A stretch of DNA of 64,000 nt, taken from contig JAHDXR010000001.1 of NCBI GenBank assembly GCA_023384105.1, forward strand, positions 310,001 through 374,000, in the 5' to 3' direction. Made by a program: the position numbers and the translations under genes. This document shows positions 22,903-33,006 of the stretch, one piece after another; the stretch's first letter is position 1, and each line of letters opens with the position of its first letter. The notes beneath the pieces are model-generated. The model had not been told where the DNA came from and did no database searches. It saw only the letters and a list, made by a program, of their open reading frames with translations. This DNA comes from Hyphomonadaceae bacterium (GTDB taxonomy: Bacteria > Pseudomonadota > Alphaproteobacteria > Caulobacterales > Aquidulcibacteraceae).

Positions 22903-26220
<3,318 letters not shown>

Positions 26221-28499: not shown

Positions 28500-28620
28500 A
28501 ATAATAGCAAAATCGTCCTAACGCAACGGAAAATCGGCGCATTCACCAAGTTCCCAAATCGGCCATTAAGGGCGACGGCGTAGGCTCGGCGATCCTTAAA
28601 GGTCCGTTTTGAGGCGGGAA

Positions 28621-30453
28621 ATGTCTGGGCAGAAGGTGGGCGCTTTCGGCTTGCGCAGGTTCGCGCGGTCGCGGCGGGGCAACGTGGCGATGCTGTGGGC
28701 GCTGATGGGCACTGTGCTCATCGGCCTCATCGGTCTGACTGTCGACTTCACCCGCGCGCAGGCGATCCGCGCCCAGTTGCAGAACGCCGCCGACGGCGCG
28801 GCGCTGGTCGCCGAGCGCAACGCCAACCTGCCAGAGGCGGAGCGCATCGCCGCGGCGCAGGCCTTCTTCGAGGCCGAGATGGGCGAGTACGCCGACGAAG
28901 TGACCGAATTCCGCGTCGTGGACATGGGCGAGGTCGGCCACCGCGTCGAGGCCGCCATTCCCATGCCGGTCACGCTGGCGCGCCTGATCCGCAACGAGAG
29001 CTGGACCATCCGGGTCCAGTCCGAGGCCGAGCAGGGCGGGCGCGATATCGAGGTCGCGGTCGTGGTCGACACCACCGGCTCGATGGCCGGCAGCCGGATT
29101 ACCGCGCTGCGCGCGGCCGCCACCGATCTCGTCAACATCATCGTCAGCGACGAGCAGGAGCCGTACTATTCAAAGGTCGCGCTGGTTCCGTACTCGATCG
29201 CGGTCAATCTCGGCTCCTACGCCTCGTCGGCGCGCGGCAGCCTCACCGGTCCCCGCTCGATCAGCGACGCGGCGTGGGCGAGCAGCCCGCAACGCAGCAT
29301 CAGCGGCGCCACACGCGCAAACCCGGTCGTCATCACCGCCAACGGCCACGGCTTCTCCAACGGCGACCGCGTGCGCATCCGCAACGTCAACGGCATGACG
29401 CAGCTGAACAACAACACCTACACCGTGCACGACGCCACGACGAACACGTTCAAGCTGCGCAACGCCAGCGGGCAGAACGTCAACGGCTCGAACTACAACA
29501 ACTATACTTCTGGCGGCAACGTCACGCGCTGCACCCGCACCGATTGCGAAGTCGTCGTCACCGCCAACAGCCACGGCCTGAGCACCAACGACTACGTGTT
29601 CATCACCGGCGTCAACGGCATGACGCAGATCAACAACGGCAACAACGCCGCCTGGCAGGTCACGGTGATCGACTCGAACTCCTATCAGCTCAATGCGTCG
29701 AACGGCCCGAGCTACAGCAACTACACCTCCGGCGGTTCGTCCTATTGCGCGCAGTATGGCTGCGAGTACTTCCGCTTCCTCAATCCGTCGGGTTCGCAGC
29801 GCCGCTACCGCGCCAACAATTGCGTGACCGAGCGCACCGGACAATACGCCTACACCGACGTATCGCCGATGACGGCGCCGGTCGGCATCCATTATCCGGG
29901 CGGCAGCGATCCCTGCGATTCAGTCGAGGTCATGCCGCTGACCTCCGACCGCACGGCGCTCAACGCGCGCATCGCCACGCTCAACGCCGACGGCTATACG
30001 GCCGGCCAGATCGGCATCGGCTGGGGCTGGTACATGCTGTCGCCGACGTTCGGGCAGATCTTCCCGGTCGACAACCGGCCGGCCGACTACGATCCGGACA
30101 AAGTGCTGAAGGTCGCGGTGCTGATGACGGACGGCGAGTTCAACACGGAATACTGCAACGGCGTCGTGGCGCGCGACGCCTCGTCGGTAAGCTCGAACAA
30201 CCGCATCAGCTGCAATGCGTCCAACGGCGACGGCTTCACCCAGGCGCGCGCCATGTGCGACGCCATGAAAGCGCAAGGCATCGTCATCTATTCGGTGGGC
30301 TTCGGCCTCTCCGCCGGCTCGGAGGCGCGCTCGGTGATGGAATATTGCGCCTCCGGCGCGTCGCGCTTCAAGGACGCGTCGAGCGGCGACGAGCTGCGCC
30401 AGGCGTTCCAGCAGATCGCCCGCGCGATCCAGGAGCTGCGCCTCACCCACTAG
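28621..30453 (+). CDS. TadG-like pilus-assembly protein with VWA domain and inserted repeats
   Basis: About 610 aa from ATG 28621, which has ggcggg at good spacing (the track's start is an upstream TTG). The N-terminus is the TadE/TadG type: SRRGNVAMLWALMGTVLIGLIGLTVDFTRA, a membrane segment placing the rest outside. A von Willebrand factor A domain begins at IEVAVVVDTTGSM (MIDAS DxTxS, residues about 150-154) and resumes at LKVAVLMTDGEFN. Between them are two copies of a VVITANGHGF...VNGMTQLNN module (about 234-300 and 309-372) resembling the FCCH-type repeat. It is probably an extracytoplasmic adhesin or Tad-pilus-like protein. No other tad genes are adjacent. Confidence 0.82.
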   Translation: MSGQKVGAFGLRRFARSRRGNVAMLWALMGTVLIGLIGLTVDFTRAQAIRAQLQNAADGAALVAERNANLPEAERIAAAQAFFEAEMGEYADEVTEFRVVDMGEVGHRVEAAIPMPVTLARLIRNESWTIRVQSEAEQGGRDIEVAVVVDTTGSMAGSRITALRAAATDLVNIIVSDEQEPYYSKVALVPYSIAVNLGSYASSARGSLTGPRSISDAAWASSPQRSISGATRANPVVITANGHGFSNGDRVRIRNVNGMTQLNNNTYTVHDATTNTFKLRNASGQNVNGSNYNNYTSGGNVTRCTRTDCEVVVTANSHGLSTNDYVFITGVNGMTQINNGNNAAWQVTVIDSNSYQLNASNGPSYSNYTSGGSSYCAQYGCEYFRFLNPSGSQRRYRANNCVTERTGQYAYTDVSPMTAPVGIHYPGGSDPCDSVEVMPLTSDRTALNARIATLNADGYTAGQIGIGWGWYMLSPTFGQIFPVDNRPADYDPDKVLKVAVLMTDGEFNTEYCNGVVARDASSVSSNNRISCNASNGDGFTQARAMCDAMKAQGIVIYSVGFGLSAGSEARSVMEYCASGASRFKDASSGDELRQAFQQIARAIQELRLTH

Positions 30454-30476: not shown

Positions 30477-32144
30477 TCAGTCCGGCGAGCGGAAGCTGAC
30501 CGAGATGCGCGTCTGCGCGCCGACCGCGCTTTGTCCGTTCGAGAGCGTAGCGCTGGCGCGATAGGCGCTCGAGGCGGCGAGCGCGGCGCGGCCGAAGCCC
30601 TCGCCCGTCGGCGTCTCCGAAGCCACCGTGCACGCGACATCGAGCGCCGGCTGCACCACGCAATCCAGTACGACGCGCCCGCCCACGCCTTCGCGCAGCG
30701 CGCGCTGCGGATAGACGTCGGCGATGCGCCGGGCGGAGGGCCGCTGCGCCCAGGACACCGTTCCGGGCGGCGGCGCGCGGACGCTCGCCGACGCCGGCGC
30801 TGCGGCCGGGGCTTCGGTGATTGTCGGCGGCGCCAGCGACACCGGCGCCTGCGTCGCGATGCTTGGCGAAGTCGTCGCCGAGACCGGCGTCGAGGCCGGC
30901 GCGGTCAGCGAGACGGGGCCGCTGCGCGGCTGTTCAGCGATCGTGGCGGTGGGCGGCGGAGGCGGCGACGGCTCACGCGCAGCCAGCTGCTGCTGCCGTT
31001 CGCGTTCGCGCTGCCGCTCGCGCTCGCGTTCCCGCTCGCGTTCGCGCGCCGCAGCGGCGTCGTCGCGGGCGGCGGTCTGCGTGCTGGCCGCGTAATCGGA
31101 GTCAAACACGCCGCCGGCGTCCGCAGACTCGCCCGGCAACGGCGTTTCGCTCGGCGCGCCGAGCGGATCGGCGCCGGCGGTTTGCTCCTGCGAAGCCTGG
31201 GAGTCGCCCTGGTTGAGACCGCCGCCGAAATAGAGGCCGCCCGCCAGCGCGGCGGCCCCCAGCAGCACGACCAGGATAAAAGCGCGCATCGGTCCGCCTT
31301 CTTTGCGCGGCGGATCGCGCAGGTCGGGCCGGTCGTAGCTGCGTTCCGGCGGCGGGCGCCGCGGCGGCTGGACTTCGGCGCGGCGCGGCGCCGCCGCCGC
31401 TTCCGCCCGCCTCGGCGGCGGGGCGGCTTCGCGGCGCGGCGTCTCCACGCGCGGCGCCGGCGCGGGCGCGCGCTGCTGGTCGGCGGTCAGCTGTTTCAGC
31501 CGCAGTTCGGCGACCTCGGCGAACGCGCCCTTGGGGCCGAACTTGGACAGATAGTCCATGAAGTCCGCGGGGTTCTTGCTGTCGCGGATCGCGCGCCAAT
31601 GTTCGGTCTCGACCGTGAGCGGGTCCGCCTCGGGCGCGGGCGCCGGGACGGGCGGGCGGTACGGCGCGGGGTCCGGCGTCGGGGCGAGGCGGGCCTGCGC
31701 GCGCGGCGTGGGCGCCGGGGCCGGGGCCGGCCGCGGCGGCGGTTCGTACTCTTCCGGGCGCGCCGAGGCCGCGCCGACGCGCGCGGAATTCACCATGCGG
31801 TCGACGGCGAAGAACAGCGGATCGAGCGAGGGATCGTTGGGATCGCCGTCCCAATGCGAGAGATCGAAAGCGGGCGAGGCGCCGATACTGGACGCCGGCG
31901 GCGGCTCGATCAGGCTCGCCACAATCGCCTTGTTGGCGTTGATGACGCGCTGCGCCGCGTCCAGGAACGGCCGCGACCGGATCGAGGCCTGCGACCAGAC
32001 CACCACGCCCGCGCCGCTTGAACGCAGCACCGCATCGCTGGACGGCGCGCCGCCGATGGTGAAGCCGGCGGCTTCGAACATTTCTGCGAGGGCCTTCGCC
32101 TGAGGCTCGTCCTCGCGGACACAAACGATGAGTACGTCCGCCAT
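30477..32144 (-). CDS. TIR-like - transmembrane - TonB C-terminal fusion protein
   Basis: 555 aa from ATG 32144, with GGAGA at six bases. Residues 1-95 look like a TIR-type fold (MADVLIVCVREDEPQAKALAEMF, GAGVVVWSQASIRSRPFLDAA). A proline-rich stretch follows, then a WRAIRDSKNPADFMDYLSKFGPKGAFAEVAELRLKQL segment of the kind seen next to caspase-like and TIR effector domains. A single membrane helix is at about 288-306, then an RE-repeat helix (RERERERERQRERER), a Pro/Thr/Ala linker and a TonB C-terminal domain (DVYPQRALREGVGGRVVLDCVVQP, about 470-555). Topology should be TIR inside, TonB domain in the periplasm. The function is unknown; the TIR call rests on pattern only. Confidence 0.7.
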   Translation of the reverse strand: MADVLIVCVREDEPQAKALAEMFEAAGFTIGGAPSSDAVLRSSGAGVVVWSQASIRSRPFLDAAQRVINANKAIVASLIEPPPASSIGASPAFDLSHWDGDPNDPSLDPLFFAVDRMVNSARVGAASARPEEYEPPPRPAPAPAPTPRAQARLAPTPDPAPYRPPVPAPAPEADPLTVETEHWRAIRDSKNPADFMDYLSKFGPKGAFAEVAELRLKQLTADQQRAPAPAPRVETPRREAAPPPRRAEAAAAPRRAEVQPPRRPPPERSYDRPDLRDPPRKEGGPMRAFILVVLLGAAALAGGLYFGGGLNQGDSQASQEQTAGADPLGAPSETPLPGESADAGGVFDSDYAASTQTAARDDAAAARERERERERERQRERERQQQLAAREPSPPPPPTATIAEQPRSGPVSLTAPASTPVSATTSPSIATQAPVSLAPPTITEAPAAAPASASVRAPPPGTVSWAQRPSARRIADVYPQRALREGVGGRVVLDCVVQPALDVACTVASETPTGEGFGRAALAASSAYRASATLSNGQSAVGAQTRISVSFRSPD

Positions 32145-32244
32145 GACGTCTCCTGCGCCCCCTGCATTCAAGTCCCAAATTGGCGCATAGCATGGAACAT
32201 GCCGCGCCGGTACGGGGGTGGCTCAGAATTGGGGTGAATTCGCG

Positions 32245-32853
32245 TCAAACCACCGGTTCGAACGCGCCGGTCGCTGGATTGAGCAGCTCCAGGCCGCCGT
32301 CCGCCACCCCGTAGCGCATGCCGACAAGCTTGAGGCCGCGCTCGCGCACGGCCGCCGCGACGAACGGAAAAGTGGCGAGATTTTCCAGCGTGACGCGGAT
32401 GCTTTCGTATTCGAGCGCGGTGGTCGGGTTTGCGCAGCCGGGCGGCAGGCGCGACTTGGCGGTGTCCAGAAGCCCGATCCAGGTGTCGAGGAAGGAGTGC
32501 GGATCGTGCGGCCGGTCCTGAAGCGCGGCGACGACGCCCCCGCACTGGGCGTGCCCCAGCACGAGGATGGTTTCCACCTTGAGCTGCAGCACCGCGAACT
32601 CGATGGCGGCGCTGACGCCGTGGCGGCCCGTGGCGTCCTCGAACGGCGGCGCGAGGTTGGCGACGTTGCGGACGACGAACAGCTCGCCCGGCTTGGCGTT
32701 GAAGATGGTCGCGGGATCCACGCGGCTGTCGGCGCAGGCGATGATGAGCGTCTTAGGCGCTTGACCGTGCTCGGCCAGGTCCTTGTGCAGCGCGCGCAGT
32801 TCCGGCCAGCGCCGCTGGCGATAGATGCGGTAGCCCTCGATCAAATGCTCCAT
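32245..32853 (-). CDS. Beta-class carbonic anhydrase
   Basis: 202 aa from ATG 32853 (MEHLIEGYRIYRQRRWPE); the track's longer frame runs on into the neighbouring gene's antisense. The zinc ligands are clear: CADSRVDP (Cys and the Asp-Arg dyad) and the HxxC in LGHAQCGGV. It interconverts CO2 and bicarbonate in the cytoplasm, the latter a substrate for carbamoyl-phosphate synthase among others. The length is normal. It is divergent from the DUF1203 gene. Confidence 0.95.
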   Translation of the reverse strand: MEHLIEGYRIYRQRRWPELRALHKDLAEHGQAPKTLIIACADSRVDPATIFNAKPGELFVVRNVANLAPPFEDATGRHGVSAAIEFAVLQLKVETILVLGHAQCGGVVAALQDRPHDPHSFLDTWIGLLDTAKSRLPPGCANPTTALEYESIRVTLENLATFPFVAAAVRERGLKLVGMRYGVADGGLELLNPATGAFEPVV

Positions 32854-33006
32854 GGCGTTCTTCAAGCGAACGCAGCGCCCGAGGGCAACCCCTCTCGTCC
32901 GCCTGGCGGCTGCGTCGGGGGCGCATCGCGCTGCGACCGGCGCAAGGTCCGAAACCGGCCAGCGGCGCGGGCGCTGCTGATGCAGAAGGGCGTCAGGAGT
33001 CGAGCA

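What the first reader, a model, noticed from the sequence alone, without database searches (positions are those of the whole stretch)
30477..32144. TIR-like domain fused through a membrane helix to a TonB C-terminal domain
Seen: N-terminal TIR-like pattern, a proline-rich linker, a WRAIRDSKNPADFMDYLSKF segment that often accompanies caspase/TIR effectors, one membrane helix, an (RE)n helix and a TonB C-terminal domain. Inference: a cytoplasmic TIR part could be controlled by envelope events sensed through the TonB part, for example phage binding to TonB-dependent receptors, or the protein is an unconventional TonB. The combination is not a standard architecture I know.
Basis: partly seen in the sequence, partly recalled or inferred. 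Interest (0 to 1): 0.65.

Follow-up and report, generated by a model that had tools for sequence, protein, structure and literature searches.

The report
Membrane-spanning pseudo-TIR protein with TonB tail
In a group of Caulobacter-relatives, one conserved protein joins a TIR signalling domain that has lost its NAD-cutting residues to a TonB-type tail on the other side of the inner membrane; it looks like an adaptor linking the envelope to the cell interior rather than a toxin, phage sensor or ordinary nutrient-uptake motor part.

Summary
The architecture is real. The gene is on the minus strand, 32144 to 30477 (ATG, 555 aa): TIR-like domain (1-122), Pro-rich linker, three-helix segment (172-224), Pro/Arg linker, one membrane helix (285-307), variable periplasmic linker, TonB C-terminal domain (462-555). 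TIR homology is solid (hhalign probability 99.2, E 6e-20), but the catalytic Glu is replaced (Ala63 here, never Glu in the homologues aligned) and about 10 residues of the BB-loop/helix-B segment (W-D...G) are missing. So no NADase is expected. The C-terminal model matches solved TonB domains. The gene sits in one syntenic chromosomal locus (carbonic anhydrase, this gene, convergent Tad/VWA gene, band-7, carB) in all adequately complete same-genus genomes and in several sister genera: a vertically inherited core gene, not a defence-island gene. The genome has a separate exbB-exbD-tonB cluster. The TIR-like part is the most conserved (91% mean identity in the genus, 64% for TonB_C). Carriers are TIR-rich genomes. 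I favour a non-catalytic TIR adaptor at the inner membrane with a periplasm-spanning TonB-type sensor or tether. The phage reading is unsupported. I found no earlier description; it is a new variant assembled from known parts.

The parts
30477..32144 (-). Complete gene, 555 aa (ATG 32144, stop 30479-30477)
   Evidence: orthologues of about 540-600 aa in adequately complete same-genus genomes
32150..32154 (-). Likely ribosome-binding site AGGAG
   Evidence: Sequence
31779..32144 (-). Degenerate TIR domain, residues 1-122
   Evidence: hhalign 99.2%, E 6.3e-20 to canonical TIRs; TIR_2 in 11 of 17 homologues; 91% mean pairwise identity within the genus
31956..31958 (-). Ala63, at the position of the TIR catalytic glutamate (FLDAAQR against VREEAR)
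   Evidence: the glutamate is placed by alignment of a canonical TIR of this genome to PdTIR and other solved bacterial TIRs
31632..31778 (-). Pro-rich cytoplasmic linker, residues 123-171
   Evidence: 43% mean identity; low confidence in the model
31473..31631 (-). Three-helix segment (W..IR.S..P.DFMDYL...G.FAEVAELRLKQL), residues 172-224
   Evidence: pLDDT about 93-96; 73% mean identity; no Pfam match
31293..31472 (-). Pro/Arg-rich cytoplasmic linker, residues 225-284
31224..31292 (-). Single membrane helix, residues 285-307
   Evidence: Hydropathy and charge bias; helix 285-305 in the model
30762..31223 (-). Variable periplasmic linker, residues 308-461, with the Arg/Glu run and a conserved GPVSL motif near 409-413
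   Evidence: 31% mean identity; P410 and L413 at least 90% conserved
30480..30761 (-). TonB C-terminal domain, residues 462-555, with invariant Cys495 and Cys505
   Evidence: PF03544, Foldseek to TonB CTD structures, invariant Cys pair
32245..32859 (-). Conserved upstream neighbour, beta-carbonic anhydrase, same strand, 100 bp gap
   Evidence: PF00484 E 6.6e-41; beside the gene in 24 of 25 named loci and in other genera
28609..30453 (+). Conserved convergent neighbour, TadE/G-like VWA protein
   Evidence: synteny

Best explanation
A single-pass inner-membrane adaptor. The N-terminal domain is a TIR fold that has lost catalysis and serves as a protein-protein interaction surface in the cytoplasm, most likely for one of the many catalytic TIR proteins these genomes encode. 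The C-terminal TonB-type domain, on a long flexible periplasmic arm, binds an envelope partner (the TonB box of an outer-membrane protein, or peptidoglycan). The protein thereby couples an envelope state to a cytoplasmic TIR-based complex, or positions that complex at the envelope. Shown by computation: domain identity, loss of the catalytic elements, TonB fold, core-gene inheritance. Inferred: topology, partners and the signalling direction.
For: TIR homology: hhalign 99.2% and profile hits to canonical TIRs. Catalytic Glu replaced (Ala63) and a roughly 10-residue deletion that removes the W-D...G segment, shared by orthologues and by pseudo-TIR paralogues. The pseudo-TIR is the most conserved part, 91% against 64% for TonB_C and 31% for the periplasmic linker, so it is under strong purifying selection and not decaying. 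C-terminal TonB fold. Cys495/Cys505 invariant on neighbouring strands, as in the clade's ordinary TonBs, fitting an oxidising periplasm. Syntenic core gene in all 17 adequately complete same-genus genomes and in sister genera. In 20 other family genomes, carriers have 9-21 TIR_2 domains and non-carriers a median of 1; the genus itself holds 8-25. A relative (L043, G007) has an intact TIR, a membrane helix, SH3_3 and TonB_C in one 793-aa ORF, so a TIR-TonB_C link arose at least twice. In this clade TonB_C also occurs in tandem in proteins with signal-peptide-like N-termini, i.e. as a general periplasmic module.
Against: No partner is identified. The TIR-count association is confounded by phylogeny, and G166 (21 TIRs) and G192 (12 TIRs) lack the gene. 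The AlphaFold model of the TIR part alone is low-confidence (pLDDT 64) and its best Foldseek hits are generic Rossmann-like folds, with MyD88 TIR only at rank 32. Asp62 lies one residue before the catalytic position, so residual activity is not formally excluded.
Confidence: 0.5

Rival explanations
1. An unconventional TonB: an accessory energy transducer for a particular outer-membrane receptor, with the TIR-like part as a regulatory or localisation appendage.
For: TonB CTD fold close to structures solved in complex with BtuB, FhuA and FoxA; long Pro-rich periplasmic arm; ExbB/ExbD are available in the genome.
Against: The genome has a dedicated exbB-exbD-exbD-tonB-exbD-tonB cluster elsewhere (L104) and no exbBD was seen near this gene. 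The membrane helix of the genus orthologues has no Ser/Thr/His in its core, and no strand-like segment follows it, whereas the clade's ordinary TonB carries 'EAVKVEIE' just after the helix, in the place of the D-box of PMC10907165. The TonB_C part is less conserved than the TIR-like part. TonB proteins in general lack a cytoplasmic domain (PMC8262864).
Confidence: 0.2
2. A structural envelope tether (peptidoglycan or outer-membrane anchoring, cell shape or polarity) in which the TIR-like domain is only a localisation handle and no signal passes, comparable to SjdR of Anabaena.
For: SjdR is a TonB-like protein with a cytosolic N-terminal extension that shapes septal peptidoglycan (PMC8262864). 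TonB_C occurs here in soluble tandem proteins. Core-gene distribution.
Against: The strongest conservation is in the cytoplasmic TIR-like domain, which is more than a plain handle needs.
Confidence: 0.2
3. An anti-phage sensor-effector: phage binding to a TonB-dependent receptor triggers the TIR part to deplete NAD+.
For: TIR domains are common effectors of defence, and TonB-dependent receptors are common phage receptors (established knowledge, not tested here).
Against: Catalytic Glu absent and pocket-forming segment missing in all homologues aligned; no PADLOC match; vertically inherited core locus with no defence genes among the neighbours tested.
Confidence: 0.06

Closest known systems
Bacterial TIR domains of the TIR_2 family (PF13676), with PdTIR (3h16) among the solved relatives
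   Same: Homologous by profile-profile comparison; same order of beta/alpha elements in the model; conserved 'DLS.W.GD' at the C-terminal end.
   Different: Catalytic Glu is Ala; the W-D/BB-loop segment is missing; joined to a membrane helix and a TonB domain.
TonB energy transducers (PF03544 / TIGR01352)
   Same: C-terminal domain fold; single membrane helix; Pro-rich periplasmic arm.
   Different: About 284 residues of cytoplasmic part; no polar motif in the helix; no D-box-like strand; not linked to exbBD.
SjdR (Anabaena, TonB-like; PMC8262864)
   Same: Cytosolic N-terminal extension, membrane helix and TonB-like periplasmic region, with a role outside transport.
   Different: Its extension is only about 65 aa and not reported as TIR; its periplasmic part resembles GltJ/AgmX and ZipA.
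Toll-like receptors and TIR adaptors of animals (works-like only)
   Same: Single-pass protein with a cytoplasmic TIR used for assembly rather than catalysis and a sensing part across the membrane.
   Different: Opposite domain order, no LRRs; the TonB domain is a bacterial envelope module; no signalling shown.

Membership tests
TIR domain superfamily | Sequence or profile homology over the TIR domain | tested here: met
   hhalign 99.2%, E 6.3e-20; TIR_2 in 11 of 17 members; profile hit to canonical TIR E 2.9e-14
TIR domain superfamily | TIR fold in a confident structure model | tested here: inconclusive
   Order of elements fits, but pLDDT 64 and no significant Foldseek hit
[quoted passage not shown]
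   Ala63; Asp62 one position before
NADase TIR | BB-loop/helix-B segment with the W-D...G motif | tested here: not met
   About 10-residue deletion in the window protein and orthologues
TonB energy transducer | TonB C-terminal domain fold | tested here: met
TonB energy transducer | N-terminal membrane anchor without a cytoplasmic domain | tested here: not met
   284 residues precede the helix
TonB energy transducer | SHLS-type polar motif in the helix, contacting ExbB | tested here: inconclusive
   Absent here, but the clade's exbBD-linked TonBs also lack a His in the helix
TonB energy transducer | D-box strand just after the helix | tested here: not met
   By inspection: Gly/Gln/Ser-rich, unconserved, low confidence; a local TonB has a strand-like EAVKVEIE there
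TonB energy transducer | Powers TonB-dependent transport | not testable with these tools
   Needs a complementation assay
TIR anti-phage systems (Thoeris and others) | Match to defence-system models | tested here: not met
   No PADLOC match
TIR anti-phage systems (Thoeris and others) | Patchy, mobile, defence-island context | tested here: not met
   Syntenic core locus
SjdR-type TonB-like proteins | Cytosolic extension, membrane helix, TonB-like periplasmic part | tested here: met
   Layout only; homology to SjdR was not tested

The most novel reading that the evidence does not exclude
A Toll-receptor-like layout in Gram-negative bacteria: a membrane-spanning non-catalytic TIR adaptor whose periplasmic TonB-type arm reads the state of an outer-membrane partner and passes it to catalytic cytoplasmic TIR enzymes, as a core cellular pathway rather than phage defence.
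Probability: 0.22. Interest if true: 0.8.

Novelty: new variant of a known kind. Interest (0 to 1): 0.5.

Why it matters
Bacterial TIR domains are discussed mostly as NAD-consuming defence or virulence enzymes, and TonB domains as parts of nutrient import. A conserved core gene that joins a catalytically dead TIR to a TonB arm across the inner membrane, in genomes with 8-25 TIR domains, would point to a housekeeping TIR network connected to the envelope. It gives a concrete gene to delete in a culturable Caulobacter relative.

Tried and rejected
Foldseek on the isolated TIR model: low-confidence model, generic Rossmann-like hits, not used as evidence. Direct PDB sequence search with the whole protein and with the N-terminal profile: only weak hits, to TonB2 and to response regulators. 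Caspase association of the W..I..S segment: looked for in 8 caspase loci of the genus, not found. Class-wide search with the TIR-like profile: the hits outside the own gene are canonical TIR proteins without TonB_C in the fetched stretches, some of which are cut at locus ends. A neighbouring conserved exbBD or defence system: none found. The 1108-aa plus-strand ORF over the same region is read as a GC-rich antisense artefact (GC3 0.87 in the minus frame; conservation follows the minus frame). Literature: no paper found that describes a TIR-TonB_C protein; PMC search only, subscription papers missing.

Full report
What is there. The gene runs on the minus strand from ATG 32144 to the stop at 30477 and encodes 555 residues, with AGGAG 5 nt upstream of the ATG. 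Nearly all orthologues begin at the same MADVL. Residues 1-122 are TIR-like, 123-171 Pro-rich, 172-224 a compact three-helix segment, 225-284 Pro/Arg-rich, 285-307 the only membrane helix, 308-461 a variable arm and 462-555 a TonB C-terminal domain. Charge bias across the helix (Arg before, no K/R in the 30 residues after) gives N-in/C-out.

TIR part. For the window protein alone Pfam TIR_2 is weak (E 0.065 whole protein, 0.0016 isolated domain). Homologues settle it: 11 of 17 hit TIR_2 and no other family recurs; the domain profile finds a canonical TIR of the same genome at E 2.9e-14; profile-profile comparison gives 99.2% and E 6.3e-20. A canonical TIR of this genome aligns to solved bacterial TIRs with the glutamate four residues after the Trp. 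At that column the window protein has Ala63 (S-R-P-F-L-D-A63-A-Q against S-Q-W-V-R-E-E-A-R), and the W-D...G stretch is missing, a deletion of about 10 residues. The homologues aligned share both losses; the residue at the Glu column is Ala in nearly all and never Glu. The survey PMC7075850 states that this glutamate is critical for NADase activity and present in more than 70% of TIRs. I therefore expect no NADase. The structure model of this domain is low-confidence and I do not lean on it.

TonB part. The full-length model is confident at residues 461-555 and Foldseek's best solved matches are TonB C-terminal domains, including those complexed with BtuB, FoxA and FhuA. Cys495 and Cys505 are invariant and also present in the clade's ordinary TonBs. 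In related genomes TonB_C also occurs as tandem domains in proteins with signal-peptide-like starts and in other membrane-anchored proteins, so TonB_C alone does not mean energy transduction here. The genome has its own exbB-exbD-exbD-tonB-exbD-tonB cluster (gene names by my reading of the ORFs). The window protein lacks polar residues in its helix core and lacks a strand like the 'EAVKVEIE' that follows the helix of a local TonB, the position of the D-box described in PMC10907165.

Distribution. Named relatives are Hyphomonadaceae/Caulobacterales MAGs including a Terricaulis sp.. All 17 same-genus genomes in the order-level search carry it (one split at contig ends, one with an apparent frameshift), as do members of five other genera of the family. 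Other families of the order matched over TonB_C only among the matches listed. The neighbours are constant: carbonic anhydrase upstream on the same strand, convergent Tad/VWA gene, band-7 gene and carB downstream, with the anhydrase and/or VWA gene kept beside it in other genera. In family members without the gene, the closest carbonic anhydrase gene found has other neighbours. This is a core gene of one clade, not a mobile defence gene.

Constraint and context. Within the genus, mean pairwise identity is 91% for the TIR-like domain, 73% for the three-helix segment, 64% for TonB_C and 31% for the periplasmic arm. The genus has 8-25 TIR_2 domains per genome. In 20 other family genomes, the 8 carriers have 9-21 and the 12 non-carriers a median of 1 (Mann-Whitney one-sided p 0.001). 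Shared ancestry inflates this and two TIR-rich genomes lack the gene, so it is only suggestive. A different protein in one relative, L043 in G007, joins an intact TIR (glutamate present) to DUF6232, a membrane helix, SH3_3 and TonB_C.

Interpretation. Shown by computation: architecture, loss of TIR catalytic elements, TonB fold, core-gene status. Inferred: topology, an adaptor role for the pseudo-TIR, an envelope partner for the TonB domain, and coupling between them (confidence 0.5). Rivals are an accessory energy transducer (0.2), a structural tether like SjdR of Anabaena (PMC8262864; 0.2) and a phage sensor (0.06).

Novelty. The components are known; the combination with a dead TIR as a clade-wide core gene was not found in the literature held, which lacks most subscription journals. 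I class it as a new variant of a known kind.

Noticed in passing
L043:1020-3401 (G007:C53): 793-aa ORF with an intact TIR (catalytic Glu present), DUF6232, membrane helix, SH3_3 and TonB_C: a second, independent TIR-TonB_C fusion, with a possibly active TIR.
   Followed up: partly
L031, L033-L040, L042 (several same-genus genomes): Paralogues carrying the same degenerate TIR domain without TonB_C; several have a membrane helix and a conserved C-terminal motif like 'VGHRGVEPPSARTVRRA'.
   Followed up: partly
G000:C11:124072-125396 (L122, L145, L152) and same-genus genomes: Widespread tandem pair of canonical TIR proteins, one TIR with a DUF805-like multi-pass part and one TIR with a membrane helix and a C-terminal extracytoplasmic-looking domain.
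   Followed up: partly
whole genus: 8-25 TIR_2 domains per 2-4 Mb genome, against 0-2 in some sister genera.
   Followed up: partly
28609-30453 (+): TadE/G-like VWA protein with two FCCH (E1 ubiquitin-activating enzyme) domain matches (E 1.8e-23), an odd combination.
   Followed up: no
24517-24565, within carB (22903-26220, -): Perfect 19-nt inverted repeat (11-nt loop) inside the carB reading frame, translated as ...[13 protein letters not shown]...; looks like a palindromic element inserted in frame.
   Followed up: partly
residues 409-413 (30906-30920, -): Short GPVSL motif nearly invariant in an otherwise variable periplasmic arm.
   Followed up: no
L170, L175: Proteins with signal-peptide-like starts and two or three TonB_C domains and no membrane anchor: TonB_C used as a free periplasmic module.
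   Followed up: no
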